From: Brucella gallinifaecis
GTDB taxonomy: Bacteria; Pseudomonadota; Alphaproteobacteria; Rhizobiales; Rhizobiaceae
Direction of reading: 5' to 3'
DNA length: 64,000 nt
NCBI RefSeq assembly: GCF_006476605.1
Contig: NZ_ML636804.1
Location: forward strand, 62,001 to 126,000
The position numbers and the translations under genes are program-made. Below, piece by piece: positions 35,351 to 64,000 of the stretch; the stretch's first letter is position 1, and every line of letters starts with the position of its first letter. Under the pieces are notes generated by a model. That model worked only from the letters and a program-made list of their open reading frames with translations. It was not told the DNA's origin and searched no databases.

Positions 35351-35417
35351 CCATTACTGACATGAGAAAGCCGGGGCAGCTTTAAACCTGCCCCGGCATA
35401 TTGATCATCATTTGCGA

Positions 35418-49701: not shown

Positions 49702-50552
49702 TTTCTTAGCTCCGGATTTAAAATATCTTGGATGAAGTCACCGAGAAGATTGACAGCGAGCACGACCAGAAGAAGCGCACAAGCAGGAAAAATAATTGGT
49801 AATGGATTGATAAATATATAGTTTTTAAGCGTGCCAACCATTTGTCCCCAAGAGGAGATTGGTGGCTGAACCCCTAATCCTAAAAAGCTAAGACCCGCCT
49901 CCATCAGCAAGGCAAAAGAGAATGTCACAGAAGTTTGGACCGCTATAATGGAATATAGGTTTGGAAGTGCTTCAGTCCGAATGAGCCTTAATTTTCCTGC
50001 ACCTAATGATTTCGCAGCTAAAACATAATCGCGTGATCTTATACTTTTGGTCATATCAAATATAACGCGCACGAATTGTGGGCAGTAGATAAAACCAATG
50101 GTGAGTATCAGTGTTGGAAGACTGCCCCCGAAAAGCGCAAGGACAATGATTGCTACGAAAGTTTCAGGGATTGAAATCATCAGATCAATGATCCGCATGA
50201 GAGCTGCTTCGACCCGCGGTCCTGCAAACCCAATTGAGACGCCCACAATTGTCCCGATTGTCCCCGCGATTATCACGGCGGCAAAGGCAACACCCAACGA
50301 AATTTGTGCTCCATAGACGATCCTGGACAGAAGATCGCGACCCAGTTCGTCGGTTCCTAGCCAATGCTCTCTCGATGGGCTTGAAAGAATATTTAAAGTG
50401 TCGAGAGCCACGGGATCCTGCAATGGGAGAACCGTCGCAAAGGATGCTAGAAATATAACTGTCATCAAAAACAACATAGCCAGGATAGCTGGTATGTTTT
50501 TTACTTTAAAAAGCTCACCGGTAAGAATCATAAGTTTTCCAGAGATCATCAC
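49698..50552 (-). CDS. Oligopeptide ABC transporter permease (DppC-like)
   Basis: Inner-membrane permease of 284 residues with six helices. LSSPSREHWLGTDELGRDLL near 55-74 is the hallmark N-terminal motif of DppC/OppC proteins. The EAA loop is in LAAKSLGAGKLRLIRTEALP near 190. It overlaps both neighbours by 4 bases. Base composition is lower in G+C than the cyo region. Confidence 0.92.
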   Translation of the reverse strand: MMISGKLMILTGELFKVKNIPAILAMLFLMTVIFLASFATVLPLQDPVALDTLNILSSPSREHWLGTDELGRDLLSRIVYGAQISLGVAFAAVIIAGTIGTIVGVSIGFAGPRVEAALMRIIDLMISIPETFVAIIVLALFGGSLPTLILTIGFIYCPQFVRVIFDMTKSIRSRDYVLAAKSLGAGKLRLIRTEALPNLYSIIAVQTSVTFSFALLMEAGLSFLGLGVQPPISSWGQMVGTLKNYIFINPLPIIFPACALLLVVLAVNLLGDFIQDILNPELRK

Positions 50553-51499
50553 GCAGCCCTCAAACGTGGGTCAAAAATACTTTGAGTGAGGTCGATCAAC
50601 AGGCTTATGAGAATAAAAATCGCAAAAATTGCTAAAAGTGATCCTTGCATCAGTGGATAGTCTCTAGCAAAAGATGCGCTCACCAAAAGTGAACTAAGTC
50701 CCGGCCAATCGAACAGTGCTTCTATTATGACTGCCCCGCCAAGCAAACTCCCGGCACGAATTCCGACAATAGATATGACCGGTACCAAGGCGTTTGGCAG
50801 GGCGTGCCGGTTTAACGCCTGGCTGCGCGTAAGGCCTTTTGACCTCGCTAGAGCAACGTAATCTTTGTGCAGAATGTCAACCAGACTGGCGCGTGCGACC
50901 CGGCTGACAACTCCCATGAAATTGAGACCTATCGCCAAAGCTGGCATTACCAGGCATGATAGATGCAACCAGGGATCCTCTGCAAACGGAACAAATCCCG
51001 AAGGCGGCAATATCTGTAGCCAGACTCCAAATACCAAAACAAGCAATACTCCAGTCACAAAAACCGGGGCAGAAAAACCGATTGTGGCAATAAAGGAGGT
51101 CAAACCGCCAAGTAAGTTTCCGCGATTGCGAGCAGAGATGATACCCAGTGGAAGGCCGAGGATTACGGAAATCATCAACCCCGCTCCGATGAGCTCAAGG
51201 CTTCGCGGAATACGACGGAGCACTTCGCTCAAAACGGGTTCGCCGCTTCTGATCGAGACCCCCAAATCTCCATGAAGAAGCCTTTCCAGCCAAAAAAAGA
51301 ACTGCATCGGCAATGGTTTGTCCAGGCCCATTTCTTGCCTGACACGCATCACGACAGCAGGGTCGCCGCCGGCGCCTTCTCCCAGCATGATCATGACTGG
51401 ATCGCCTGGGATTAAGCGAACGATGAGAAAGATTGCGATTGCCGCCAATGCCAATGTTACGGCAGCAGACGCAGTACGTCGGTAGAAAAAGCTGAACAT
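50549..51499 (-). CDS. Oligopeptide ABC transporter permease (DppB-like)
   Basis: Inner-membrane permease of 316 residues. The start MFSFFYRRTASAAVTLAL leads into helix 1, FLIVRLIPGDPVMIMLGEGA near 25-45 is the DppB hallmark, and the EAA loop is in LARSKGLTRSQALNRHALP near 210. An intercistronic hairpin separates it from the binding-protein gene upstream. Confidence 0.92.
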   Translation of the reverse strand: MFSFFYRRTASAAVTLALAAIAIFLIVRLIPGDPVMIMLGEGAGGDPAVVMRVRQEMGLDKPLPMQFFFWLERLLHGDLGVSIRSGEPVLSEVLRRIPRSLELIGAGLMISVILGLPLGIISARNRGNLLGGLTSFIATIGFSAPVFVTGVLLVLVFGVWLQILPPSGFVPFAEDPWLHLSCLVMPALAIGLNFMGVVSRVARASLVDILHKDYVALARSKGLTRSQALNRHALPNALVPVISIVGIRAGSLLGGAVIIEALFDWPGLSSLLVSASFARDYPLMQGSLLAIFAIFILISLLIDLTQSIFDPRLRAA

Positions 51500-51514
51500 A
51501 AGCGCCTCAATGGC

Positions 51515-51540
51515 GCCCGACTTTTAAACAGAAGCCGGGC
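51515..51540. other. Intercistronic hairpin in the peptide ABC operon
   Basis: Stem GCCCGACTT (51515-51523) with AAGCCGGGC (51532-51540, one mismatch). The T-run lies on the plus-strand side, so for the minus-strand operon it is not a normal terminator. It probably protects the 3' end of the binding-protein mRNA, as REP hairpins do between malE and malF. Confidence 0.5.
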
Positions 51541-51549
51541 TTTTTTGTG

Positions 51550-51632
51550 CTACAGCATAATTCCTTAAGCCAGAAGAGATTGAGGTGAAATTATGCAGCA
51601 AATATAGCGTGTTAGAGCGTTTTCTAGGCGCC
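51550..51632. repeat. Rhizobial-type palindromic repeat, degenerate
   Basis: ACAGCATAATTCCTTAA, TGAAATTATGC and GTTAGAGCGTTTTCTAGGCG echo the repeats at 41250 and 58702. It lies between the binding-protein and permease genes. Confidence 0.5.
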
Positions 51633-51639
51633 TTGCACT

Positions 51640-53190
51640 CTAGCGGAAAGACATTGAGGGCAAACAAATCGCAGCCGCACTCTCATTAAGAGCTCCGGGG
51701 ATATGGACGTAACCCGAAACTTTACGGAGATAGGCCTGGGCTTGCTCTCTGAAGTTTATGAAAATCCACGGCATCGTTTCTAACAAACGTTCTTCTACTT
51801 TTTGATATATGAGTTTCCGCCGCTCAAGATCAGTTTCCGCCCTGCCTTCATCAAGCAAAGCTTCTAAAACATCATCCCTATAGCCAATCGGTTTTGCCCA
51901 ATATGTTGATGTTGAGCCGAAATAATAGCTATAGGCATCAGGGTCATTCAGCTTCATCGATACGCCATAAAGCATAGCATCGTAGTTGCCAGAGTTTTTA
52001 CGGTTAATAAGGTCCGACCATTCAACAAGTTTGATGGTCACATTTATACCTACCTGCTTCAAATTCGCCTGAAGTATCTGAGCTGTGGTCGTATAAACAC
52101 CCAATCCCTGAAATACGATAAGCTCCATGGACAGACCTTCAGCATATCCAGCTTCTTTAAGAAGTTTCTTGGCTTCTTCTAAATCCAGGGAGACACTGTT
52201 TTTTAAATCGGCATTATAAAATGGCGATTCTTCTGGGGTTGGCGCCCCGTAGATAGGCGCTCCATGACCAAAGAATGCAGCTCGAGAGACGGCTTCTCTG
52301 TCGATAGCGAATGCGATAGCTCTGCGCACCAATGGATTGTCCCATGGGCTTCGTGACGCATTAAACCAAATATTCATGAAACCGCCACTGGCAGAATCGA
52401 CTTTGAAATTAGGCATACGTCCAAGAACGTCAATGTCCTTCCATGGTACAAAGTCAATCATGTCAAGAGTGCCGCCCCGAAGTGCACTAACTCTCGCATC
52501 GTCGCTCTTGATCATTCGGAAATCCACACCGTCCAGCAGTGGCTGATCCTTGTGAAAATAGCTGTCATTCTTGAGCAATTTTGCCGATACGCCCGGCTCG
52601 TAAGACGCCAGATGGAATGGTCCCGTACCATTCGCATTGGCCTTTATATTCACACCTGAATTGACCCATGCTCTGGATAGAATTGCCGCTTCTGGAAGGG
52701 ATAGCACTGAGAGAAGAGAAACATTCGGCGCCACACTTTTTAACTCAATCGTCTGCGGATCCAGTATTTTGACAGACACATCATTGAGATAGTTTCGAAG
52801 TGTTGCTCCTGTAGCCTCGTTCTTTATTCTTTCGAGTGAAAAGAGAACATCGTCTGCCACAACGTCAGAACCGTCATGATACTTAACACCTTGGCGCAAT
52901 TTGAAGATGATCGTGGACGCATCTGGCTGCTCCCACGATTCTGCAAGCCCTGCTACCATATTGCCGTTCGTGTCATTGGTAACAAGCGTCGAATAAATCG
53001 AGCCAATAAGCACTTTCCATGCAGTTCCCCCGTAAACATGAGGATCCAGGTTTGTGACTTCGGTCACTGTACCATAGCGCAGAAGATTTCCGCGCCCCTG
53101 GCCAAAAGCTGGTACCGCACCGTTAGTGAGAACGAACCCGCCGATAGCGCATAAGCCAGATAGTGCAAATGTACGCCTTGTCAGTTCCAT
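51640..53190 (-). CDS. Family 5 peptide/opine-type solute-binding protein
   Basis: Periplasmic binding protein of 516 residues and first gene of the transporter. The N-terminus MELTRRTFALSGLCAIGGFV is a twin-arginine-like signal, so folded export is likely. LRYGTVTEVTNLDPHVYGG starts the mature protein, and VKYHDGSDVVADDVLFSLER near 100 is the SBP_bac_5 hallmark. Start ATG at 53190 follows GGAGGCAAAGAC; the open frame to 53220 was not used. Ligand specificity (dipeptide, opine or other) cannot be told from sequence. Confidence 0.9.
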   Translation of the reverse strand: MELTRRTFALSGLCAIGGFVLTNGAVPAFGQGRGNLLRYGTVTEVTNLDPHVYGGTAWKVLIGSIYSTLVTNDTNGNMVAGLAESWEQPDASTIIFKLRQGVKYHDGSDVVADDVLFSLERIKNEATGATLRNYLNDVSVKILDPQTIELKSVAPNVSLLSVLSLPEAAILSRAWVNSGVNIKANANGTGPFHLASYEPGVSAKLLKNDSYFHKDQPLLDGVDFRMIKSDDARVSALRGGTLDMIDFVPWKDIDVLGRMPNFKVDSASGGFMNIWFNASRSPWDNPLVRRAIAFAIDREAVSRAAFFGHGAPIYGAPTPEESPFYNADLKNSVSLDLEEAKKLLKEAGYAEGLSMELIVFQGLGVYTTTAQILQANLKQVGINVTIKLVEWSDLINRKNSGNYDAMLYGVSMKLNDPDAYSYYFGSTSTYWAKPIGYRDDVLEALLDEGRAETDLERRKLIYQKVEERLLETMPWIFINFREQAQAYLRKVSGYVHIPGALNESAAAICLPSMSFR

Positions 53191-53225
53191 GTCTTTGCCT
53201 CCTTGTTTTTGTTCCCGCATTATTT

Positions 53226-54407
53226 TTAAGGTAGATGATGAAGCAATTGATCGATTTCAGCTATATCATTGTAATAGCTGGGTGAAATTCTCAGACGTCC
53301 CCCTCGTTGAGCGAGATCTATGCCCGCCGCCTGAAGTTTTTTGTCAATATCTGCAGGACTTATTGAAGGGTGAAGGAATGAAAGATTCCCGGACCGCTCA
53401 TGATCCGCAAAGGGGCTAGAGATTTGATAGCCCTTCCTTTTTAGGCCTTCGGCTGCGTGCGAATTCAAGGAGTAGATGTGCTTTTCAATAGCACGGGGAG
53501 TGAGTTGGAGCTGTAAGTGAACAGCGGCATCAAGGCCCCATATGCCTGGGAAATTCACCAAGGCTTCTTCGAAACGACCCGCGTTAGGCCGATATTCCAA
53601 TAAATATTCAAGGTGATCTTCACCACGGTCTACAGAATGGTAACCGACAGATGGCGGATCGAGTAACTCCAGCACTTCTTTTCTACAGAAAAATATGCCT
53701 GTTCCCACCGGTGCCAGCATCCATTTGTGTCCACCGAATGCCATAAAATCAACCCCGTACTTGACGACGTCCATTTCCAAAGCACCAACCCATTGGATCG
53801 CATCGAGATTCAGCAGAACGCCATGCTCTTTGCACAGGGCGGAAGTCTGCTCCAGATCCTGACGGAAACCGTTTGTAAATTGCACTGCACTAAGAGATAC
53901 GAGGCGCGTTTTTTCGTCCATCAATGCACGGATATCATCGACAAGAACCCGGCCGTCACGGTTTTTCACCCACCGGATTGAAACACCTTTGGCAGCAAGC
54001 TTCATCCAGCAGTAAACATTGGATGGATACTCAAAGTCCGCAATGATGACATTGTCACCCTCGTTCCAACTCAGTCCGTTTGCGACATTCACCAGGCCTT
54101 CTGTGGTGTTTTTAACGAAAGCGATTTCACTGCGTTTTGCACCAATGAGCTTGGCAACGCGATCCTTGATCACCGTATCGGCATGGCTACACCAATGGGG
54201 ATAATCATTGCGTCCATTGTCACGACAGTTCTCTAAGAAGCGCTCTACCGACGCAACGACGGGCGAACTCAACGCGCCGATGGACGCATTGTTGAGGTAA
54301 ATCCTTTTATCTTTAATGGGAAACAACTTCCCGACATTACTGAATGAAACTCCAGAAATCCCATCCGGATCATCAGCGAATAAAGGCTTGGTGGGTGCAG
54401 CACGCAT
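53226..54407 (-). CDS. Class V aminotransferase-fold PLP enzyme
   Basis: Product of about 393 residues in the cysteine desulfurase / isopenicillin-N epimerase superfamily. YLNNASIGALSSPVV near 37 is the N-terminal motif, KNTTEGLVNVANGL near 98 the phosphate-binding region, and FGGHKWMLAPVGTG near 225 carries the PLP lysine. It lacks an obvious desulfurase cysteine loop, so epimerase, lyase or transaminase activity is possible. The frame extends to a GTG at 54458; a TTG at 54419 with AGGAGT upstream competes with ATG at 54407. It lies 35 bases upstream of the binding-protein start and may process the imported ligand. Confidence 0.85.
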   Translation of the reverse strand: MRAAPTKPLFADDPDGISGVSFSNVGKLFPIKDKRIYLNNASIGALSSPVVASVERFLENCRDNGRNDYPHWCSHADTVIKDRVAKLIGAKRSEIAFVKNTTEGLVNVANGLSWNEGDNVIIADFEYPSNVYCWMKLAAKGVSIRWVKNRDGRVLVDDIRALMDEKTRLVSLSAVQFTNGFRQDLEQTSALCKEHGVLLNLDAIQWVGALEMDVVKYGVDFMAFGGHKWMLAPVGTGIFFCRKEVLELLDPPSVGYHSVDRGEDHLEYLLEYRPNAGRFEEALVNFPGIWGLDAAVHLQLQLTPRAIEKHIYSLNSHAAEGLKRKGYQISSPFADHERSGNLSFLHPSISPADIDKKLQAAGIDLAQRGGRLRISPSYYNDIAEIDQLLHHLP

Positions 54408-54673
54408 TGCGATCGTCAAGATTGACTCCTGTCTATCAACGGCTGAGGTGACTCGCACCTTAAGCCGAGCAAAAATTCTCTATGGATTGTGGGACGTCGC
54501 CCGGCTGAACACTTTTCGCAGGTCAGATGATCCACGTAACGCTTGTATCAATTTATGGATACTGTATACTGGATCCAATCTATCGTTGCAAGCGCATTTG
54601 ATAACTTTTATGAAGCTGGCCAATCTGCTCTAAACAGATAACTACAATTAATTGGCAATTAGAGAGAATCGAT

Positions 54674-55345
54674 ATGACATCCATTCAACCTGCTATTGAG
54701 CGGCGCACGATTGCTTCGCAGGTTACCGAGCGTTTACGGTCCAAGATATTATCGGGAGAGCTCGCAATCGGTCAGCGGCTGAGGCAAGAGCAGCTTGCTG
54801 CAGAGCTTGGTGTCAGCCGGGTTCCTGTACGTGAAGCTCTGAACCAGCTTGAGGCTGAAGGGCTTATTCTTGTGGAAGCCAATAAGGGCGCCGTAGTTAA
54901 AGGAATTTCGGTTGAGGCGCTAAGTGAGATGTATGAGCTTCGTGCACATATTGAAGAGTGGCTTATTGCTCTTGCGATACCGCGCGCAAGCGAGGCGGAT
55001 TATGAAAGCGCTGCGCGTATTCTTGATGAAATGCTAAGTGAAAGCAGCCCGGTGCATTGGACAAGCCAGAATTGGAAGTTTCATGAGACGCTTTACCGGC
55101 CATCAGCGCGAACTCAGTCACTGGATATGCTCGATCGTTTGTATAAAAATACATATCGGCATTTTCCTGTTCCGGTTAGATTCACATTAGGAATTGAAGC
55201 AATGGATACTGAACACCGCGAACTTTTAGCGCTTTACAAAGCCAAAGACATCGTGGCGGCCCAAAAATACTTGCGGCAACATATAATGCGCGGAGCAAGC
55301 TCATTAGTTGAACGAATGCTGGCAGCCCAGAACACGGAAACATAA
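54674..55345 (+). CDS. GntR-family regulator, FCD (FadR-like) subfamily
   Basis: DNA-binding regulator of 223 residues. The winged helix domain (residues about 10-80) includes LGVSRVPVREALNQLEAEGL. The FCD effector domain begins MYELRAHIEEWLIALA near 88, with metal-binding-type His residues in FHETLYRP and REHxx-like DTEHRELLALY. FCD regulators usually respond to organic acids or amino acids. It is divergent from the aminotransferase gene across 267 bases that contain the semi-palindromic ATACTGTATACTGGATCC near 54559-54576, a candidate operator. It likely controls the transporter operon. Confidence 0.88.
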   Translation: MTSIQPAIERRTIASQVTERLRSKILSGELAIGQRLRQEQLAAELGVSRVPVREALNQLEAEGLILVEANKGAVVKGISVEALSEMYELRAHIEEWLIALAIPRASEADYESAARILDEMLSESSPVHWTSQNWKFHETLYRPSARTQSLDMLDRLYKNTYRHFPVPVRFTLGIEAMDTEHRELLALYKAKDIVAAQKYLRQHIMRGASSLVERMLAAQNTET

Positions 55346-55614
55346 GATGGGCTTGCTTCTTTCATGTGGTGATAAGGCATCGTTACCCACCAGACAATGC
55401 CCATCAGACAATGTGCAATGAGCTGAGAAATCTGGGCGCGGTTAGCGCTGCCTTATTGATGTATTTGCTGCAACGAACAGCAATGGGTTTGCAAGAGTTT
55501 CGGAGCTGGTTCTCTGCATCAATTTACAGAATATCCTTGGCGCTTGAAGCCCAGCCGAATATCGAAACAGTCATGGCATCGTGCCATAAAACCAGTCCCG
55601 GTTTTTATCCGCAC

Positions 55615-55692
55615 CTAGTGGATTGAATTTGACATTTGAATCACGGTTACCCTCACTGCCTGTTCAAATGTCAAATTCGTAAAATCCACTAG
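55615..55692. repeat. Long imperfect palindrome 1
   Basis: Arm CTAGTGGATTGAATTTGACA... (55615-55639) is complementary to 55664-55692, which ends ATCCACTAG, with 24 bases between. It could form a long hairpin in RNA or a cruciform. Confidence 0.8.
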
Positions 55693-55706
55693 AAACATAT
55701 ACTTGG

Positions 55707-55782
55707 CTAGTGGTTTTTGGATTCCAACATTTGCCCTCATGGGTGGAGTGGCGGGATGCAAATGTTGGAATCAAACCACTGG
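55707..55782. repeat. Long imperfect palindrome 2
   Basis: Left arm 55707-55734 (CTAGTGGTTT...CCAACATTTGC) and right arm 55758-55782 (GCAAATGTTGGAATCAAACC...). It shares the CTAGTGG end and the overall plan with palindrome 1, 15 bases away, so the two look like members of one repeat class. The 495-base gap 55346-55840 holds nothing else supportable. Confidence 0.8.
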
Positions 55783-55840
55783 CTCACTCATTTCTTCTCT
55801 TGATAAATCCATGCAAGTTATGCCCATCAATTAATTGAAT

Positions 55841-57040
55841 TTATGAGCCTTTACCCGGCAGTTTTCCATTAAGTACGACAGACGCGACGAGGCCGATCAC
55901 CAGCCCCCAGAATGCTCCGCCAATGCCGAGCAAACTGATATTCGCAGCAGATGCAAGAAAGGTAATGAGTGCAGCTTCTCGTGAACGAGCGTCTGCCATT
56001 GCACCGGCAAGGCTTCCCCCGATTGCCCCAAGCAGAGCAAGCCCCGCAAGTGTAGTGATGAATGTTGCGGGAAATGCCATAAATACCGCTGCGAGCGTTA
56101 CTCCAAACACCCCGACCAGAATATAAAAGCAACCCGCAGCTATACCGGCGATCCAACGTTTTGACGGATCTTCATGCGCTTCCCGACCTGTCGCAATGGC
56201 AGCGGTAATTGCTGCAATGTTAAATGCATGCGAGCCAAACGGGGCCATGATAAGTGAGCCCAGACCCGTTACCGTTACGATAGGGTTGGCACTTGTCTGA
56301 AACCCGTCATTTCGCAGTACCAGCATGCCGGGCATATATTGACCTGTTAAGGTGATAAGGAACAACGGCAGTGCGATACTGAGCGTGGCGTTCAGGCTAA
56401 ATTCTGGCATGGTGAAAACGGGAGCGGCCAGTTTCAATTCCAGATCAGATAGATCGACACGACCCTGCATCAGCAGGATAAAAAGCCCAATCACCAAGAT
56501 ACCAATGACTGCATATCGTGCGCAAAAACGCTTTAAAACGACATAGGCAGCAATCAGCGTGCCTACCAAAACGGGATCGACACTCACACTGCTGAATGCA
56601 CCTATTCCAAATTGCAACAATATGCCTGCAAGCAACCCTGAAGCTATGCCCGGAGGTATCAACCGGATGACTTTTTCAAAACACCCGGTAAGACCAAGCA
56701 GTACGAAGGCCACGGCTGAGATCATATATGCCCCGATTGCTTCTGCATAGGATGCCGTGGCGAGCGCAGTGACAAGGAACGCTGCGGCAGGTGTGGACCA
56801 TGCCGTTATGATTGGCTCACGATAACGCCAGCTTAGCAGCAAACCAGAAAGACCGACGCCGATCGAAATCGACCAGACCCAGGATGCGGTCAGTTCGGGG
56901 CTAAGATTGGCTATACGCGCCGCCTGAAAAACGAGAATAAACGTACCGCCATAATTAACGATGACTGAAATCAAGCCTGCAACAACAGGGTGGATGATAT
57001 CATTTATTCGGGCAGGCGTACGTGAAGAGGTGCAGGACAT
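55841..57040 (-). CDS. benE: BenE-family benzoate/proton symporter-like protein
   Basis: Inner-membrane carrier of about 399 residues with 10-12 helices. Family landmarks are AAFLVTALATASYAEAIGAY near 85, GIASGLLAGILLQFG near 130 and a central GSHAFNIAAITAAIATG near 265. ATG at 57040 follows CGGAGTAG; the open frame to 57190 was not used. Substrate is unproven; benzoate-pathway genes are absent here. It is divergent from a MocR regulator, which probably controls it. Confidence 0.88.
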   Translation of the reverse strand: MSCTSSRTPARINDIIHPVVAGLISVIVNYGGTFILVFQAARIANLSPELTASWVWSISIGVGLSGLLLSWRYREPIITAWSTPAAAFLVTALATASYAEAIGAYMISAVAFVLLGLTGCFEKVIRLIPPGIASGLLAGILLQFGIGAFSSVSVDPVLVGTLIAAYVVLKRFCARYAVIGILVIGLFILLMQGRVDLSDLELKLAAPVFTMPEFSLNATLSIALPLFLITLTGQYMPGMLVLRNDGFQTSANPIVTVTGLGSLIMAPFGSHAFNIAAITAAIATGREAHEDPSKRWIAGIAAGCFYILVGVFGVTLAAVFMAFPATFITTLAGLALLGAIGGSLAGAMADARSREAALITFLASAANISLLGIGGAFWGLVIGLVASVVLNGKLPGKGS

Positions 57041-57146
57041 GTTCGGGCTACTCCGGAAAAGCATATTCAAGCGATAGACAGGCTTGACTTTTAGATGCTC
57101 AATGGACTGATGTGCCCCTCCAATTACAGCAAGAGATACCATCCAT

Positions 57147-58655
57147 TTGTTCAAGCACTCGCAACTCGAATCCGTAAAAGCCTGGCTCAATCATCCCGCG
57201 CATTCAGCCATGCCGCTTCATGCGCGTATACAACGTGCGATCCGGCAATTGATTGTGGATGGTGCACTCAGTCGCGGCAAACCACTTCCGGCCTCCCGTG
57301 CGCTCTCACAGTCACTTGGCGTCTCACGCGATACAGTTGAAGCGGCTTATACGCAGCTCCACGCAGAAGGTTTCATTGAGCGCCGGGTCGGCAGCGGTAG
57401 TTTCGTCTCGCAAATCGCAGAGTTTTCCATTGGTCGTCGACACACGAAACGTTCCCGCAACCCAAAAGATCAATCGCCTGAACTCAGCAAGCGTGGCAAG
57501 GCGATATTCCAAAGCGGCGGCGTGCTCGAGACTTTGACACCATGCCCTTTTGCACCCGGCATACCCGACACACGAAATTTCCCGCTTGCGCTTTGGGAGC
57601 GCCTGCAAAGACAAGTGCTCAAAGAGATAGGGCCGCAAACGCTTTTGCATGGAGACCCGCAAGGGGTTGAGCAACTACGACAGGCAATCGCAGATTATAT
57701 CAATCTCGAACGCGGCGCACGCGCCACTGCCGGGCGCGTTTTGATACTCACATCTTCGCAACAGGCGCTGACATTGTGCGCGAATGTATTGTTTGATCCG
57801 GGTGAGCGCATCTCTATCGAAGACCCCGCCTATTATGGAGCCCGCAAGGCATTTGAAGCTGCCGGGCTGAACTGCGTGCCTGTTGAGCTGGATCAGCAAG
57901 GAATCAACATCGAGCCTATCGTCAATGATCCCAACCCGGCACGCGCTGTCTTCCTCACACCCTCACATCAATTTCCAACGGGCGTAACCCTGGCCCTGGA
58001 CCGCCGGCTTGCATTGATCGAATGGGCGAAACGTCACCGAGGCTGGATAATAGAGGATGATTACGACAGTGAGTTTCATTATGCGGGCAAACCCACAGCC
58101 TGCATGCAAGGCCTCGATCATTATGATAGAACTATATATATCGGCACCTTCACCAAGTCGCTCTTTCCGGGATTACGGATAGGCTATGTCGTGCTGCCCG
58201 AACAGCTGGTCAAACCAATGACCACAGCGCGAACGCTTCTTGATGGGCATACGGCTTCCATTGCACAATATACGCTTGCCCGCTTTATAGAAGGCGGACA
58301 TTTCGGAGCCTATATTCGCACCATGCGTGGCATCTATGCCCAGCGCCTTGAAATATTGACCAGATTGGTTCGCAAACATCTTGCAGGTTTTGTCGAGCCG
58401 CGGGTTCCTGTGGGAGGAATGCAAATGCCCTGCCTGTTGACATGCGACATCTCCGAGCAAGTTGTTTTGGAAGCCGCTCGCCGTTCTGAAATTGGGCTGT
58501 TGGGGCTATCAGCACTCCATGCCACAGGTGAAGGCGAGGCAGGGTTTCTGCTCGGCTTCGCAGCCTATACGCCAACAGAACTTGAGATCGCGGTCAGGAA
58601 GCTTGAAAAAATATTCCACACACTCAAGGTCGTTCCGGCACTGAAATATAACTGA
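57147..58655 (+). CDS. MocR-type regulator (GntR HTH fused to aminotransferase-like domain)
   Basis: Product of about 502 residues. A winged helix (HARIQRAIRQLIVDGALSRG, then LGVSRDTVEAAYTQLHAEGF) is joined to a fold-type I aminotransferase-like domain that includes HQFPTGVTL, EDDYDSEFHY and FTKSLFPGLRIGY with the PLP lysine. MocR proteins use PLP to sense vitamin B6 or amino compounds. The TTG at 57147 is the longest start; ATG at 57210 would cut 21 residues but keep the HTH. It faces benE and is its likely regulator. Confidence 0.88.
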   Translation: MFKHSQLESVKAWLNHPAHSAMPLHARIQRAIRQLIVDGALSRGKPLPASRALSQSLGVSRDTVEAAYTQLHAEGFIERRVGSGSFVSQIAEFSIGRRHTKRSRNPKDQSPELSKRGKAIFQSGGVLETLTPCPFAPGIPDTRNFPLALWERLQRQVLKEIGPQTLLHGDPQGVEQLRQAIADYINLERGARATAGRVLILTSSQQALTLCANVLFDPGERISIEDPAYYGARKAFEAAGLNCVPVELDQQGINIEPIVNDPNPARAVFLTPSHQFPTGVTLALDRRLALIEWAKRHRGWIIEDDYDSEFHYAGKPTACMQGLDHYDRTIYIGTFTKSLFPGLRIGYVVLPEQLVKPMTTARTLLDGHTASIAQYTLARFIEGGHFGAYIRTMRGIYAQRLEILTRLVRKHLAGFVEPRVPVGGMQMPCLLTCDISEQVVLEAARRSEIGLLGLSALHATGEGEAGFLLGFAAYTPTELEIAVRKLEKIFHTLKVVPALKYN

Positions 58656-58807: not shown

Positions 58808-60307
58808 TCACAGTGGAAGAGGTTTACCGTCCTGTCCTTGATGGCGTACCTCATAGATGACTTCCGCCAGTCGGTGCACGCCACGCTCAATTTGTCTTGG
58901 CTCAAGCGCAGCATAACCCATGACCAGACCCATCAAGTCGGGAACTGCGTCAGGTTCATGCGGATCATAGAGTGCGGATATGGAGTAAAGTCCTAGTCTG
59001 GCCTTGCGGGCGGAAAGTAACAGTGCTTCTTCGGATGAGCGCGGCAGCTCCTTGAACCATACGACCAGGTGAAGGCCGGCATCCGCGCCTTCGATGATAA
59101 TAGTTTCCCCAAATCGATGCTTCAGCGCGTTCAGCAGAGTTTCCCGTCGCTCTATGTTGAGGCGACGAACGCGGCGGACGTGCTTTTCATAGGTGCCGTC
59201 TTCGATAAGAGATGCGAACGCCTCCTGATCGGTGATCGGCGAGTGCCTGTCCATGAACTGCTTGGCGGATGCGAAGACTGGTTGCAGCTCAGGCGGGAGG
59301 ACGAGATAGCCGATGCGCAATGTTGGCGAAAGCGTCTTGGAAATCGTGCCAAGATAGATGACATTGTGACTGTCCGGCAGCCCGTAAAGCGGCGGCACGG
59401 GATTGATGTCATAGCGGTATTCACTGTCGTAGTCGTCTTCAATCACATAGGCATTCTGCCGTCGCGACCAAGCCAGCAATTGCTGCCGGCGCGGGACAGG
59501 CAGGATACCACCCAATGGATATTGATGCGACGGGGTAACGTAAGCGAGACGCGCAGACACATTCTCCAGATGTTCGGTTGCGAGACCGTGACTATCGGCT
59601 GGAAGAGTGACCGGCAGGGCTCCTGTACTGGCAAAGGCATATCGCGCCATGGCATATCCGGGATTCTCCATGACGAACCGGTCGCCGGGATTGAGGAGAA
59701 GCCTTGCGCAAAGGTCGAGGCCTTGCTGGGAGCCATTGACGATTATGATCTGTGCCGGACTGCACTGAAGACCACGTGCGCGCCACAGATATCCCTGCAA
59801 GGCAGTGCGCAAGCGCCACGAACCGCAAGGATCACTGTAAGTCAGCCTCTCAGGACGCTGCGCCATTGCCTTGTTCATAGCGCGTTTCCAGATTGTCGTC
59901 GGGAAATCTACGATGGATAAATCTCCATAGTGGAAGTCGGCGACGAGATTGGCACCGGGCTGGTGCGGACGCGGAGGCAAGGTGAGCACGCGTTTACCGT
60001 AGTCTGACAGCAGGACAGGCTGAAGGGTATGTGCGCCCTTGCTCTTGGGCGAATGGTCGAACATCGCGCGTACGACACGTGGCCGGCTACCTTGCCTGAC
60101 CTCAATAAAGCCTTCTGCGGTGAGTTGCTCATAAGCAATGGTGACGGTTGTTCGGGAAACACCCAGTTCCTGAGCCAGTGCCCGCGATGATGGCAATTGA
60201 CCATTCTCACCGAAAACGCCGCTGGCGATCTGGCTTTTCATGGCGTTGTAAATCTTGCGTGCACCCATGGTGTGACGCGGAGATTTCAACATGTGGCTAT
60301 CGTTCAT
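58808..60307 (-). CDS. MocR-type regulator, PdxR-like
   Basis: Product of 499 residues in the MocR/PdxR family. An HTH (ARKIYNAMKSQIASGVFGEN, then LGVSRTTVTIAYEQLTAEGF) is joined to an aminotransferase-like domain with HQYPLGGIL, EDDYDSEYRYDI and ISKTLSPTLRIGYLVLP containing the PLP lysine. Start ATG at 60307 follows GGAAAC; a TTG at 60322 is less likely. It is divergent from an operon encoding an exporter, a PLP-binding protein and a pyridoxal kinase, so a PLP-responsive regulator of that operon is a natural reading, though unproven. Confidence 0.88.
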   Translation of the reverse strand: MNDSHMLKSPRHTMGARKIYNAMKSQIASGVFGENGQLPSSRALAQELGVSRTTVTIAYEQLTAEGFIEVRQGSRPRVVRAMFDHSPKSKGAHTLQPVLLSDYGKRVLTLPPRPHQPGANLVADFHYGDLSIVDFPTTIWKRAMNKAMAQRPERLTYSDPCGSWRLRTALQGYLWRARGLQCSPAQIIIVNGSQQGLDLCARLLLNPGDRFVMENPGYAMARYAFASTGALPVTLPADSHGLATEHLENVSARLAYVTPSHQYPLGGILPVPRRQQLLAWSRRQNAYVIEDDYDSEYRYDINPVPPLYGLPDSHNVIYLGTISKTLSPTLRIGYLVLPPELQPVFASAKQFMDRHSPITDQEAFASLIEDGTYEKHVRRVRRLNIERRETLLNALKHRFGETIIIEGADAGLHLVVWFKELPRSSEEALLLSARKARLGLYSISALYDPHEPDAVPDLMGLVMGYAALEPRQIERGVHRLAEVIYEVRHQGQDGKPLPL

Positions 60308-60359
60308 GCTGTTTCCAGACAATCATTCGGGAATAGCCGAGGCGAGCGGCGTGCCCGGC

Positions 60360-60407
60360 AACTGGACCATATAAATCTATTCTAACTGGCTCACTCTTTT
60401 ATGCCAG
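60360..60407. promoter_or_regulatory. Candidate MocR operator
   Basis: Direct repeats AACTGG at 60360-60365 and 60384-60389 (24-base period, about two helical turns), followed by an inverted TGCCAG at 60402-60407. Paired direct repeats are typical MocR sites. It lies in the 179-base divergent gap. Confidence 0.5.
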
Positions 60408-60486
60408 ATTTTTATTAGGCTGACGCAAAAATCAAGAGACCGACAAGAAGTTGGGCTTCTAAAGCGATGAGAGAGAAAAACTAGCG

Positions 60487-61692
60487 ATGGATCAGCCTCG
60501 ATCCCTGGCCATGCGGCCGCAAACCCATTTTGCCGTCCTGATCGTGCTGAGTGTCACACATCTTCTCAACGATCTGATCCAGTCATTGATTCCGGCGGTC
60601 TATCCGATCATCAAGGACGCATATTCGCTCGATTTTGTGCAGATCGGGATGATCACTATGACCTTTCAGATCGCGGCCTCGCTGTTGCAGCCGGTCGTGG
60701 GGCATGTCACCGATCAGCGCCCGATGCCTTATGCATCTGTCGTTGGCATGGTCTTTTCTCTTGCCGGGCTGGTCGGTCTGGGTTTTGCGACCAGCTATGG
60801 CTTCATCCTCGTTTCGGCTGCCTGTGTCGGGATCGGTTCGTCAATCTTTCACCCCGAGGCGACGCGGATGGTGCGCAATTCCTCTGGTGGACGGCAGGGT
60901 CTGGCTCAGGGGCTGTTTCAGATTGGTGGACAGGCAGGAGGTGCGCTTGGCCCATTACTGGCTGCGATGATCATCGTTCCTCGCGGACAGGCAAGTCTTG
61001 CCTGGTTCGCGGCGGCGGCCCTTATCGCCATGATGCTCATGATATGGACGGCAGGGCAGTACACGACGATCCACCGCCGCCTGATAGCTGCAAAGGCGGC
61101 CTCGGCCATGTTGCCCCGGCCCTCGCTGCCGCCGAAAACGGTGATACTTGGCCTGATAGTCTTGACCCTGCTGATGTTTTCGAAAAATGCCTATGTCGAA
61201 AGTTTCCGGTCCTTTTACACCTTTTATCTGATCGACCGATTTGACGTATCAATCCAGACCTCGCAATTGATGCTGTTTGTCTTTCTGGTAGCATCAGCTG
61301 TAGGCGCATTGGTTGGCGGCATTCTCGGGGATCGGATTGGCCGTTACCGTATCATCTGGATATCGGTTCTCGGTCCCCTGCCACTGACACTGCTGTTGCC
61401 CTTCGCCGATTTCTTCTGGACCGGCATATTGACGGTTTTCATCAACCTCATCATGGCGAGCGCCTTCGCCTCGATCCTGATTTACGCCATGGAACTGGCG
61501 CCCGGCAGGATCGGCCTGATCGGTGGCCTGTTCTACGGCCTCAATTTCGGGCTGGCCGGGATTGCCGCCGCCGGCCTGGGCGCACTGGCCGACAGTATCG
61601 GGATTGAAAGCGTCTACCAGATTTGCGCTTTCCTGCCTCTTGCCGGGCTGATGACCTGGTTTCTTCCGCATATTGAACAGCGGTCGGCATGA
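60487..61692 (+). CDS. MFS exporter, fosmidomycin-resistance (Fsr) type
   Basis: Inner-membrane major facilitator protein of 401 residues with 12 helices. VTHLLNDLIQSLIPAVYPII near 20 and the loop GHVTDQRPMPYASVVGM near 78 fit the Fsr group. GSSIFHPEATRMVR near 118 and GGILGDRIGRYRIIW near 278 are further landmarks. Fsr-like proteins export fosmidomycin, but the natural substrate of this one is unknown. Start ATG at 60487 follows GAGAGAAAAAC. It is the first gene of the plus-strand operon divergent from the MocR gene, and yggS follows 29 bases later. Confidence 0.9.
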   Translation: MDQPRSLAMRPQTHFAVLIVLSVTHLLNDLIQSLIPAVYPIIKDAYSLDFVQIGMITMTFQIAASLLQPVVGHVTDQRPMPYASVVGMVFSLAGLVGLGFATSYGFILVSAACVGIGSSIFHPEATRMVRNSSGGRQGLAQGLFQIGGQAGGALGPLLAAMIIVPRGQASLAWFAAAALIAMMLMIWTAGQYTTIHRRLIAAKAASAMLPRPSLPPKTVILGLIVLTLLMFSKNAYVESFRSFYTFYLIDRFDVSIQTSQLMLFVFLVASAVGALVGGILGDRIGRYRIIWISVLGPLPLTLLLPFADFFWTGILTVFINLIMASAFASILIYAMELAPGRIGLIGGLFYGLNFGLAGIAAAGLGALADSIGIESVYQICAFLPLAGLMTWFLPHIEQRSA

Positions 61693-61721
61693 CGACATCC
61701 ATTCAATTTTGCTACGGATAA

Positions 61722-62504
61722 ATGACTATGACCGATATTCTCACCGCTGAAGACATTGCCCGGTTTGGTGCCGACCCGTGCAAAACCTTTGGCGACAACC
61801 TTGTGGCTGTTGAAGAGCGGATTAAACGCGCTTGCGCCAGAGCGGGACGCGAACGTGCCTCCGTGCGCCTGCTTCCGATCACCAAAACCGTGCCCACCCA
61901 CGTTCTGCGTCACGCCTATAAGGCCGGCATTCGCTCGTTCGGAGAAAACAAGATACAGGAAGCGATGTCCAAGCATGGAGCACTGGAAAGCCTTGCCATC
62001 GACTGGAGCATCGTCGGGCATCTTCAAACCAACAAGGTGAAATATCTCACACGTTTTGCCTGCGAGTTTCATGCACTCGACAGCCTGCGCCTTGCAGATC
62101 AGCTCAACAAACGGCTGGAGCGCGAGGACCGCTCGATGGACGTTTTCGTTCAGGTCAACACGTCGAGCGAAGACAGTAAATTCGGGCTGCATCCTGACGA
62201 GTTGATGCCTTTCGTAGAAACGCTCGACAGGTTCCCGAGGCTTCGTCCGCGTGGTTTGATGACGCTCGCACTCTTTTCCTCCGACATGTCGAAAGTACGG
62301 CCCTGCTTTGCGCTTCTGAGAAATCTCCGGGACAAGGCGGTGCAGGTGCATGCGGGCCTGACGGGGCTGTCGATGGGTATGACTGGAGATTTTGAGGAGG
62401 CCATTGAGGAAGGTGCGACCGTCGTGCGGGTGGGGCAGGCGATCTTCGGCAAACGCCCGACGCCTGACGGGCACTACTGGCCGGGACTGGCGGACAGCGA
62501 ATGA
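61722..62504 (+). CDS. yggS: YggS/PROSC-type PLP-binding protein
   Basis: Single-domain alanine-racemase-like barrel of 260 residues that binds PLP and maintains B6 homeostasis rather than racemising. LLPITKTVPTHVLRHAY near 48 carries the PLP lysine. SFGENKIQEAMSK near 74, WSIVGHLQTNKVKYL near 97, VNTSSEDSKFG near 148, GLSMGMTGDFEEAIEEGATV near 215 and VRVGQAIFG near 235 are the phosphate-site hallmarks. Start at 61722 or 61728 is ambiguous. The stop overlaps the pdxY start by 4 bases. Confidence 0.92.
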   Translation: MTMTDILTAEDIARFGADPCKTFGDNLVAVEERIKRACARAGRERASVRLLPITKTVPTHVLRHAYKAGIRSFGENKIQEAMSKHGALESLAIDWSIVGHLQTNKVKYLTRFACEFHALDSLRLADQLNKRLEREDRSMDVFVQVNTSSEDSKFGLHPDELMPFVETLDRFPRLRPRGLMTLALFSSDMSKVRPCFALLRNLRDKAVQVHAGLTGLSMGMTGDFEEAIEEGATVVRVGQAIFGKRPTPDGHYWPGLADSE

Positions 62505-63379
62505 TGCGGGTGATCTCCATTCAGAGCCAGGTTGTGCATGGTCATGTCGGCAACAGCGCGGCTGTGTTCCCGATGCAGGCCAAGGGGCTGGAAGTCGCGG
62601 CCATTCCAACGGCGCTGCTGTCCAATCACCCGCACTATCCGACCATGCATGGCCGTGTGCTGGAACCCGAACTTGTGGCTGGCTTGCTACAGGGTGTAGA
62701 GGAGCGCGGACTGATCGAGGCATCGAGGGTTGTCGTCACTGGCTATCTTGGATCGGTCGAGAATGCGCGGGTTGTAGCCCGCTTCATTGAACGGGCGCAT
62801 AATCGTAATCCCGATCTGATCTATGTCTGTGATCCGGTTATGGGTGATGATGATCTTGGCATTTTCGTCAAGGAAGGCTTGATCGAAACATTCCGCGACA
62901 GTCTGGTGCCGATGGCGTCGGTCATTACGCCGAACCAGTTCGAGCTCGAATTGCTGGCCGGCAGCAAGGCCCGTTCGGCGGAGGGGCTGGCAATGGCTGC
63001 AGACGAGATCATCAGGCGCGGCACGGGGGCCGTGGTGACGACGGGTTGCGTGCTCGACGACACGCCGGATCGGAGTGTGGAGACGATCACCCGTGCAGAC
63101 GGACAGCTTCATCGAACATCGGTGATGCGTCTCAATATGCGCCCCTGCGGAACAGGCGATATCTTTACCGCCCTTCTGGTTGCCCAGCTTTGCGCAGGCA
63201 GGCCGCTAGCGGAAGCAACTGAGACAGCGACCCGGGAAGTATTCGCCATTCTTTCCCGTAGCCCCTCTGACGGGCCGGGCTCTGACGGGTCTGGCTTTGG
63301 CGGATCTAGCTCTGGCGGATCGGGCGAGATGCGGATCATCGGTTTTCCATTTTCTCAATTCCGGTCTGTCGAGGTTTGA
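62501..63379 (+). CDS. pdxY: Pyridoxal kinase, with C-terminal Gly/Ser repeat
   Basis: Phosphorylates pyridoxal to PLP. The product is 292 residues, ribokinase superfamily. ISIQSQVVHGHVGNSAAVFP near 5-24 is the PdxY substrate region, YVCDPVMGDD near 109 an ATP/Mg motif, TPNQFELELL near 147 and RPCGTGDIFTALLVA near 211, which contains the catalytic Asp. Residues about 255-274 are a Gly/Ser/Asp-rich insert from a 15-bp tandem repeat, just before the conserved C-terminal segment. It overlaps yggS by 4 bases. Confidence 0.93.
   Translation: MMRVISIQSQVVHGHVGNSAAVFPMQAKGLEVAAIPTALLSNHPHYPTMHGRVLEPELVAGLLQGVEERGLIEASRVVVTGYLGSVENARVVARFIERAHNRNPDLIYVCDPVMGDDDLGIFVKEGLIETFRDSLVPMASVITPNQFELELLAGSKARSAEGLAMAADEIIRRGTGAVVTTGCVLDDTPDRSVETITRADGQLHRTSVMRLNMRPCGTGDIFTALLVAQLCAGRPLAEATETATREVFAILSRSPSDGPGSDGSGFGGSSSGGSGEMRIIGFPFSQFRSVEV
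63264..63323 (+). repeat. 15-bp tandem repeat inside pdxY
   Basis: Four 15-bp units at 63264-63278, 63279-63293, 63294-63308 and 63309-63323, for example GCTCTGACGGGTCTG and GCTCTGGCGGATCGG. Each encodes five residues rich in Gly and Ser, so expansion keeps the frame. Confidence 0.9.
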
Positions 63380-63381
63380 TC

Positions 63382-64000
63382 GTGTCCTACCTGCAAGGTC
63401 TGTCTGGTTTTCCGATCACTCCGACAAATGCGAAGGGGAGCGTTGATGTGGCGCAGCTTCGTATGCTTATCGCGCGGCTGGTTGGGGCCGGTGTTGACTC
63501 CATTGGTCTGCTGGGCAGCACGGGAACCTATATGTATCTTAGCCGTGAGGAACGTCTGCGGGCGGTCGAGGCGGCGATCGGGGAAGCCTCAGGAAAAACG
63601 CCTGTGGTGATTGGCATCGGCGCCTTGCGGACAGATGAGGTTGTCCGGCTTGCTCAGGATGCGAAAGGCGCAGGCGCCGTGGCGGGGTTGCTTGCCCCTG
63701 TTTCCTATACGCCGTTGACCGAAGACGAGGTTTTCGACCATTACACAACGGTCGCGCGTAAAAGCGGCCTGCCGATCATCATCTACAACAACCACGCCAC
63801 CACGCATTTCAGCTTCAGTCCGGCACTGATCGGACGTCTCTCGCGTGAACCGGGCATTGTCGGGATCAAGAATCCCGCGCCGATGGATGATGCAGCCAGA
63901 GAGATCGCAGAACAGCGCAGCTCGGTCAGCGAAGGGTTTTCGCTTGGGTATAGCGGCGATTGGGATTCAGTGGAGGCTCTGATTGCCGGCGCGGATGTCT
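63382..64000 (+). CDS. Dihydrodipicolinate synthase / N-acetylneuraminate lyase family, 5' part
   Basis: The frame starts with GTG at 63382, 2 bases after the pdxY stop, preceded by GAGG, and runs off the right edge. Visible are SGFPITPTNAKGSVD near 8, GLLGSTGTYMYLSREER near 40, VSYTPLTEDEVFDHYTTVA near 110 and GLPIIIYNNHATTHFSF near 130, with the conserved Tyr. GIKNPAPMDD near 160 has the Schiff-base lysine. The DapA family includes many lyases; this one replaces the usual GxTGE with GSTGTY, so it is unlikely to be the housekeeping DapA. At least five genes would then share the operon. Confidence 0.85.
   Translation, partial: MSYLQGLSGFPITPTNAKGSVDVAQLRMLIARLVGAGVDSIGLLGSTGTYMYLSREERLRAVEAAIGEASGKTPVVIGIGALRTDEVVRLAQDAKGAGAVAGLLAPVSYTPLTEDEVFDHYTTVARKSGLPIIIYNNHATTHFSFSPALIGRLSREPGIVGIKNPAPMDDAAREIAEQRSSVSEGFSLGYSGDWDSVEALIAGADV

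What the first reader, a model, noticed from the sequence alone, without database searches (positions are those of the whole stretch)
58808..64000. Candidate PLP-centred locus under a MocR regulator
A PdxR-like MocR gene faces an Fsr-like exporter, YggS-type PLP-binding protein, pyridoxal kinase and DapA-family lyase, with coupled starts. A PLP-sensing regulator controlling PLP carrier, salvage kinase and an exporter would be a coherent B6-homeostasis or detoxification unit. The exporter and lyase roles are not explained by known B6 pathways. I do not know of this set being described.
Basis: inference. Interest (0 to 1): 0.75.

Follow-up and report, generated by a model that had tools for sequence, protein, structure and literature searches.

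The report
Mobile PLP-supply operon under MocR control
[quoted passage not shown] related sets ride on plasmids and several bring spare B6-dependent enzymes, which hints at protection against B6-blocking chemicals.

Summary
MocR2 (58808-60322, -) faces an Fsr-type MFS, a YggS paralogue, a pyridoxal kinase and a DapA-family enzyme ending 275 nt beyond the window. MocR2, YggS and kinase pass curated family cut-offs; the DapA-like protein fails the true-DapA cut-off. The divergent region holds a three-box operator (AACTGG-N18-AACTGG-N14-CCAG, 60360-60407), seen upstream of 14 of 14 MocR2 orthologues (window included; 3 by a relaxed pattern) and once in the host genome. The exact five-gene set was in 0 of 120 fetched kinase loci (at least 6 duplicates). 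Four-gene versions occur in Shinella (no MocR beside it) and Aureimonas (no MFS). Accessory YggS proteins form a clade apart from the housekeeping YggS tested; those sought on plasmids often sit with MocR, kinase, transporters and PLP enzymes (GlyA, TrpB, ArgD, SerC, IlvA). Suvorova and Rodionov 2016 already predicted PdxR regulons with pdxK, COG0325, BenE, GlyA, ArgD and DapA families, so the kind is known. Most likely an accessory PLP-supply/protection unit; resistance to PLP-directed antimetabolites is the bold, untested reading.

The parts
58808..60322 (-). MocR2, PdxR-type MocR regulator (GntR wHTH + aminotransferase-like domain); a start at the ATG near 60307 is equally possible
   Evidence: PLP-lysine motif TISKTLSP aligns with GabR TFSKSLLP
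60360..60409 (+). Predicted MocR2 operator, three boxes: AACTGG (60360-60365), AACTGG (60384-60389), CCAGAT (60404-60409)
60487..61692 (+). MFS transporter, Fsr type
61722..62504 (+). YggS (PLPHP) paralogue of the accessory clade; PLP lysine K55 conserved
62501..63379 (+). Pyridoxal/pyridoxine kinase paralogue, with a Gly/Ser-rich stretch near the C-terminus
63376..64000 (+). DapA-superfamily lyase, 5' part; gene ends at contig C5:126275 (L004:10276)
57147..58655 (+). MocR1, second PdxR-type regulator, neighbour unit
55841..57190 (-). BenE-family transporter, divergent from MocR1 (the listed ORF overlaps MocR1's ORF, so its true start is probably further in)

Best explanation
This is most likely a horizontally acquired, PLP-status-controlled accessory operon. 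MocR2 binds PLP in its aminotransferase-like domain (inferred from conserved residues) and docks on a three-box operator at 60360-60407 (conservation shown, binding inferred). When the free PLP signal changes, most likely falls, it lets the divergent operon be read. The operon then supplies a second B6 kinase to make PLP from salvaged vitamers, a second YggS/PLPHP to hold and hand on PLP, an Fsr-type pump, and a pyruvate-type aldolase of unknown substrate. It adds to the housekeeping YggS and kinase rather than replacing them. Its job is to keep PLP enzymes running when B6 is short or under chemical attack; the first two rivals below are the two narrower forms of this umbrella, so the odds overlap. 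Shown: gene families, layout, operator conservation, paralogy, patchy distribution. Inferred: PLP sensing, direction of regulation, transport substrate, aldolase role, acquisition.
For: Family models above curated cut-offs for MocR2, YggS and kinase. Operator: strict pattern upstream of 11 of 14 MocR2 orthologues (window included) and relaxed in the other 3, which are of one genus; in 4.51 Mb of other locus sequence, both strands counted, the only 2 strict hits are the window's and Aureimonas' own sites, with 23 relaxed hits; single hit in the host genome, reversed control 0. Second copies elsewhere in the genome: YggS at 38%, kinase at 34%. Same operon in Shinella daejeonensis (MFS 75, YggS 78, kinase 67, DapA 58%) and, with MocR2 64% but no MFS, in Aureimonas fodinaquatilis (YggS 69, kinase 65, DapA 53%). 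MocR2 relatives sit beside FMN_bind_2, LysE, DapA or LctP genes. Acquisition: no listed match of 34 other genomes of the genus spans the block, while the right-hand backbone is conserved from about 118 nt after DapA (list cut); GC 0.58 against 0.507 for window 1-54000.
Against: No binding, expression or enzyme data. MFS and DapA partners vary between relatives (BenE, LctP, LysE, GATase, GlyA instead), so neither is essential to the core. The Bradyrhizobium kinase relatives show none of the other families queried. Accessory-clade YggS loci in Rhizobium and Paracoccus plasmids have no MocR or kinase annotated within 7 kb, and Tsukamurella's lies beside dnaG. In the Salinicola MAG only an accessory-clade YggS was found, so there it may be the only one.
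Confidence: 0.6

Rival explanations
1. Resistance module against a PLP-directed antimetabolite (B6 analogue or carbonyl-trapping agent). The pump removes the agent, the extra kinase and YggS restore PLP, and in fuller islands spare PLP enzymes and an acetyltransferase replace inhibited targets or modify the agent. (A narrower form of the best explanation.)
For: Plasmid relatives carry PLP enzymes such as GlyA, TrpB, ArgD, IlvA, SerC or GabT near YggS. PLP/B6 genes: 31 of 179 CDS in 13 annotated YggS neighbourhoods against 2 of 154 CDS in six 30-kb control stretches of six of the same plasmids, Fisher p 1.7e-7; with regulator and kinase left out, 13 of 82 against 1 of 154 on those six plasmids, p 5.5e-6. 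One cluster lies between relaxase and traG/trb genes. In E. coli a yggS mutant is hypersensitive to 4'-deoxypyridoxine and PdxY appears not to be inhibited by it (PMC10202323, passages).
Against: The window's own operon has no spare PLP enzyme. No inhibitor is known for it. The two GNATs tested hit no model above cut-off. In E. coli, kinase PdxK makes 4'-deoxypyridoxine toxic, so an extra kinase could also hurt. Control plasmids were chosen after the clusters were seen.
Confidence: 0.3
2. Plain vitamin B6 scavenging: the transporter imports a vitamer, the kinase traps it, YggS buffers PLP, MocR2 represses when PLP is plentiful. (The other narrower form of the best explanation.)
For: PdxR regulons are predicted to control pdxK and transporters, BenE being a putative pyridoxine transporter (PMC5320631 section 11). 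MocR1 with BenE, kinase and often YggS is a recurrent unit.
Against: Fsr-type MFS proteins are regarded as exporters (recalled). Scavenging does not explain the DapA-like enzyme or the PLP enzymes of relatives.
Confidence: 0.35
3. Catabolic unit for an amino acid or amino-acid-like compound: a PLP enzyme makes a 2-keto acid that the DapA-family aldolase cleaves, and LctP/LysE/MFS moves substrates; kinase and YggS only supply cofactor.
For: MocR2 orthologues face a methionine-gamma-lyase-like gene and DapA in L269, L270 and L271, with LctP in L269 and L271 (L271's lyase scored, below the equivalog cut-off).
Against: The window operon has no PLP catabolic enzyme; many relatives lack DapA.
Confidence: 0.2
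4. Chance neighbours without common function.
For: The five-gene set is not seen elsewhere and partners vary.
Against: Conserved order in Shinella and Aureimonas, ATGA coupling, conserved operator.
Confidence: 0.03

Closest known systems
PdxR regulons of Suvorova and Rodionov 2016 (PMC5320631; abstract, sections 9-11 and passages seen)
   Same: PdxR-type MocR; pdxK, COG325 (YggS), BenE, GlyA, ArgD, GuaA-family amidotransferase, RimI/RimL acetyltransferases and DapA families named as members; two direct boxes plus one inverted box is the commonest MocR motif type, with a TGT or TGG core
   Different: 'MFS' and 'fosmidomycin' do not occur in the main text; the five-gene arrangement, the AACTGG operator and plasmid carriage are not in the sections seen; the supplementary tables were not available
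PtsJ-YggS-kinase loci of enterobacterial plasmids (Enterobacter 638, Lelliottia)
   Same: MocR-type regulator divergent from accessory-clade YggS and a PfkB-family kinase 37% to the window's
   Different: Regulator annotated PtsJ, 24% to MocR1; no DapA or Fsr annotated nearby
PdxR-PdxKU locus of Streptococcus pyogenes (PMC11619246; search listing and abstract start only)
   Same: PdxR with a B6 salvage locus PdxKU
   Different: Named PdxK and PdxU only; not looked at further
AGR_C_1641p, PDB 2r8w
   Same: Nearest solved relative of the DapA-like protein, E 5e-91
   Different: Molecule name gives no function

Membership tests
PdxR-type MocR regulator | GntR wHTH joined to aminotransferase fold-I domain, above the PdxR model cut-off | tested here: met
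   NF052282 431.5 bits, cut-off 320; Pfam GntR and Aminotran_1_2. MocR1 also passes (409 bits)
PdxR-type MocR regulator | PLP-binding lysine | tested here: met
   SKT motif aligned to GabR SKS; that this lysine binds PLP in GabR is recalled
PdxR-type MocR regulator | Multi-box operator with a conserved core in the divergent region | tested here: met
   14 of 14 orthologues, window included, 11 strict and 3 relaxed; layout as in PMC5320631 Table 2
PdxR-type MocR regulator | PLP-dependent DNA binding | not testable with these tools
   needs bench work
YggS/PLPHP (COG0325) | Model score and conserved PLP lysine | tested here: met
   TIGR00044 182 bits, cut-off 106; K55 aligned to E. coli YggS, at one of two lysines changed in entry 7uax
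Housekeeping YggS orthologue | Groups with housekeeping YggS in a tree | tested here: not met
   28 accessory rows apart from 11 housekeeping rows, support 100/100; from 13 rows, 100/99. No actinobacterial housekeeping row was included
Pyridoxal kinase | Model score and GTGD motif | tested here: met
   TIGR00687 220 bits, cut-off 144.5; below the narrower PdxY and PdxK cut-offs; GTGD aligned to 2ddm
4-hydroxy-tetrahydrodipicolinate synthase (true DapA) | Equivalog score | tested here: not met
   TIGR00674 131 bits, cut-off 206
4-hydroxy-tetrahydrodipicolinate synthase (true DapA) | Arginine that binds the aldehyde substrate (R138 in E. coli, recalled) | tested here: inconclusive
   By eye the window has NNHATT after the conserved Tyr; compared with the E. 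coli enzyme from recall only
Fsr transporter | Sequence similarity to annotated fsr | tested here: met
   51-52% over 98-99% to three annotated fsr records
Fsr transporter | Drug export activity | not testable with these tools
   needs bench work

The most novel reading that the evidence does not exclude
The operon belongs to a mobile class of PLP-protection islands: a dedicated clade of YggS, a B6 kinase and a MocR sensor, with exchangeable pumps and spare PLP enzymes, spread by plasmids and conjugative elements across Proteobacteria and Actinobacteria as resistance to natural or man-made inhibitors of PLP enzymes.
Probability: 0.28. Interest if true: 0.82.

Novelty: new variant of a known kind. 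Interest (0 to 1): 0.55.

Why it matters
How cells keep reactive PLP low yet deliver it, and which proteins move B6 vitamers, are open questions (PMC9997740, passages). A compact unit that pairs a PLP-type sensor with a kinase, a carrier and a pump, with a sharply defined operator, is a ready test bed. If the plasmid islands protect against PLP-directed inhibitors, they would be an unrecognised, transferable kind of antimetabolite tolerance and would give the accessory YggS clade a role.

Tried and rejected
Rejected: 'DapA = lysine biosynthesis' (below the equivalog cut-off). Rejected: 'the exact five-gene set is a conserved unit' (0 of 120 loci; one search found 6 loci present in both sets by a middle-of-locus probe, so at most 114 are distinct). 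Rejected: orthology of the MFS of the BYT-1 and pKAZ5 clusters with the window's MFS (26-27%), although the pKAZ5 one is annotated as fosmidomycin resistance. Canavanine degradation was considered because of the methionine-gamma-lyase-like gene beside DapA in relatives; one search listed four papers, of which I saw titles and abstract starts only, and did not follow it up. 'pKAZ5' gave no paper. Searches for a published link between such islands and inhibitor resistance showed none in the listings; only the held open-access library was searched. No tRNA in L004 and no direct or inverted repeat of 20 nt or more in L004:1-12000, so no boundary element was seen. Structure prediction and fold search were not used.

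Errors mended on the way: the first YggS tree had four housekeeping rows translated on the wrong strand; corrected and extended. The Fisher test that leaves out MocR and kinase used 12 where the count is 13; one search gives the corrected one. The six control plasmids were picked by hand among annotated records after the clusters had been seen. PLP/B6 genes were counted by reading product names, with MocR-type regulators, B6 or PfkB-family kinases and PLP enzymes counted and the query YggS left out; L294 was left out as a near-copy of L263; unannotated records (L266, L289, L295-L298) were not counted; H14 was not fetched.
Full report
Identity and place. The window is contig C5:62001-126000 of a 3.74 Mb genome. 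Its genus holds G678, whose contig C10 has the same length (64385) as an Ochrobactrum chromiisoli record, so the host is probably in the Ochrobactrum/Brucella group; the species is not known. The DapA-like gene runs to C5:126275.

Observation. All five families are present in the stated order and orientation. MocR2, YggS and kinase pass the curated cut-offs of the PdxR, YggS and pyridoxal-kinase models, the kinase falling short of the narrower PdxY and PdxK ones. The DapA-like protein does not pass the true-DapA cut-off (131 against 206 bits); its nearest solved relative is AGR_C_1641p, 2r8w. The MFS is 51-52% identical to three records annotated fsr. PLP-lysine positions are kept in MocR2 and YggS, and the GTGD motif in the kinase. 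YggS and kinase overlap as ATGA.

Operator. The window has AACTGG at 60360, AACTGG at 60384 and inverted CCAGAT at 60404. A strict pattern, ACTGG N18-19 ACTGG N13-15 CCAG, is found, between 60 nt inside and 300 nt upstream of the MocR match, for 11 of 14 orthologues (the window among them, all about 50% identical or more), and a relaxed one for the other three, which are of one genus. A shortened relative in G704, not among the 14, also shows it. In 4.51 Mb of locus sequence, both strands counted, the only two strict hits are the window's own site and Aureimonas' own; relaxed hits number 23. Base-shuffled upstream regions gave 0 strict and 0.17% relaxed. The host genome has one match and the reversed control none. 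Two direct boxes plus one inverted box is the commonest MocR motif type in PMC5320631 (section 9). So the regulator very probably acts here and, by the strict pattern, nowhere else in this genome.

Paralogy and acquisition. The genome has a second YggS (38%) and a second kinase (34%) elsewhere, and another Fsr-like MFS beside a divergent gene that I take for an AraC-type regulator by eye. Of 12 genomes tested, 11 have a YggS at 57% or more to this genome's housekeeping copy; the Salinicola MAG has only the accessory form. In a tree, 28 accessory and 11 housekeeping YggS rows fall on two sides of a branch with 100/100 support, and 100/99 with E. coli and Agrobacterium rows added. The accessory rows come from Alpha-, Beta- and Gammaproteobacteria and Actinobacteria; they were gathered by similarity to the window's YggS or from loci of its kinase, 16 of the 28 by searching plasmids, and no actinobacterial housekeeping row was in the tree. 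Within the genus (34 other genomes) the right-hand backbone is contiguous in several from about 118 nt after DapA, while no listed match spans MocR2 to DapA; pieces of YggS-kinase occur in G704 and of MFS in several (the listing is cut). The two backbone loci looked at (L122, L123) hold none of the queried genes. GC is 0.58 for the operon part in the window, 0.56 for MocR2, 0.527 for BenE-MocR1 and 0.507 for window 1-54000. Acquisition by transfer is therefore likely but inferred.

Neighbour unit. BenE (55841-57190) and MocR1 (57147-58655) were not part of the finding. In the listed matches the pair appears elsewhere in 16 of the 34 other genomes of the genus and MocR1 alone in one more. In loci of Pseudochrobactrum, Pseudaminobacter, Brucella/Ochrobactrum species, Tsuneonella, Magnetospirillum and Rhodopseudomonas, MocR1 and BenE are joined to the kinase, in many also to YggS. 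The window thus holds two neighbouring PdxR-type units whose gene families overlap.

Conservation of the set. Kinase matches, the window's own included: 63 of 297 genomes of the order at E 1e-40 or better and 27 of 394 of the family at E 1e-45 or better. None of these 120 (at most 114 distinct) has MocR2, MFS, YggS and DapA all at 50% or more beside the kinase. YggS at 50% or more was in 7 of 40 and 12 of 80; a MocR at 30% or more was in the same locus in 7 of 7 and 11 of 12. Bradyrhizobium loci show none of the other families queried. Shinella daejeonensis has MFS-YggS-kinase-DapA without an adjacent MocR; the only MocR2 match in its genome at E 1e-60 or better is 31%. Aureimonas fodinaquatilis has MocR2 facing YggS-kinase-DapA without MFS. 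DapA relatives: 60 places in 56 of 297 family genomes, own included; of 20 fetched, 5 have a MocR2 relative at 54-63% and one a fragment.

Plasmid islands. Of 72,556 plasmid records, 21 encode a YggS relative at E 1e-50 or better; 20 were fetched. Pseudomonas BYT-1 and BYT-5 and plasmid pKAZ5 carry MFS-MocR facing BenE-YggS and, further on, kinase-ArgD-TrpB-TrpA-GlyA-LysR; BYT-1 and BYT-5 also have GNAT and amidotransferase genes between, and LctP and DapA next to the MFS. In BYT-5 the cluster lies between relaxase/DUF3363 and traG/trb genes, which from recall resembles the cargo slot of Tn4371-type elements. Agrobacterium: MocR facing thioredoxin-amidotransferase-GlyA-YggS-PdxY. Prescottella: YggS-PfkB-family kinase-GNAT-SerC facing aminotransferases, GabT, IlvA and a TrpB-like gene, no MocR named. 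Rhodococcus: BenE, two aminotransferases, YggS, GlyA and a PLP-dependent-aminotransferase-family gene, probably MocR. Three Shinella megaplasmids: BenE, MocR1, GlyA, YggS. Against: Rhizobium, Paracoccus and Tsukamurella loci show no such set. By product name, 31 of 179 CDS are PLP or B6 genes in 13 annotated loci, against 2 of 154 in six control stretches (p 1.7e-7); on the six plasmids with controls it is 20 of 82, or 13 of 82 against 1 of 154 without regulator and kinase (p 5.5e-6). A MocR-type or PtsJ regulator is within 7 kb in 9 of the 13.

Mechanism. I take the unit to be an accessory, PLP-responsive supply and protection operon. Scavenging alone does not explain pump, aldolase and the PLP enzymes of relatives. 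A B6 antimetabolite would: in E. coli K-12, yggS loss gives hypersensitivity to 4'-deoxypyridoxine, and PdxY appears not to be inhibited by it; but PdxK makes that compound toxic by phosphorylating it, so an extra kinase could cut either way (PMC10202323, passages). No inhibitor is known here and the window's operon has no spare PLP enzyme, so I keep the resistance reading at 0.28-0.3.

Known or new. PMC5320631 section 11 names almost all these families as PdxR regulon members, including a BenE putative pyridoxine transporter and DapA. Its supplementary tables were not available to me. 'MFS' and 'fosmidomycin' are absent from its main text. What I add: the operator, the four-gene relatives, the neighbour unit, the accessory YggS clade and plasmid carriage; whether any of these is in the supplement is not known.

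Noticed in passing
window 47947-54458: Oligopeptide-type ABC transporter genes with a class V aminotransferase (another PLP enzyme), beside a GntR/FCD regulator (54674-55345), left of BenE; probably a separate unit.
   Followed up: partly
window 55604-55783: A repeat of about 170 bp between the GntR gene and BenE, with three further copies at 94-97% identity on other contigs.
   Followed up: no
window 63260-63328: Gly/Ser/Asp-rich stretch near the kinase C-terminus, absent from the four aligned homologues that reach that far.
   Followed up: no
L005:5932-8189: Second Fsr-like MFS of the host, divergent from a gene that looks like an AraC-type regulator (by eye).
   Followed up: no
L115:5640-19876: G704 contig C3 has two YggS-kinase copies with redoxin and LctP-like genes; one yggS copy is frame-broken, and a shortened MocR2-like ORF has the three-box operator.
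   Followed up: partly
   Followed up: partly
window 33620-37763: SbmA/BacA-like ABC protein next to a TonB-dependent receptor.
   Followed up: no
L269, L270 and L271: MocR2 orthologues facing a methionine-gamma-lyase-like gene and DapA, followed in L269 and L271 by an LctP-like permease and a gene that looks GST-like by eye.
   Followed up: partly
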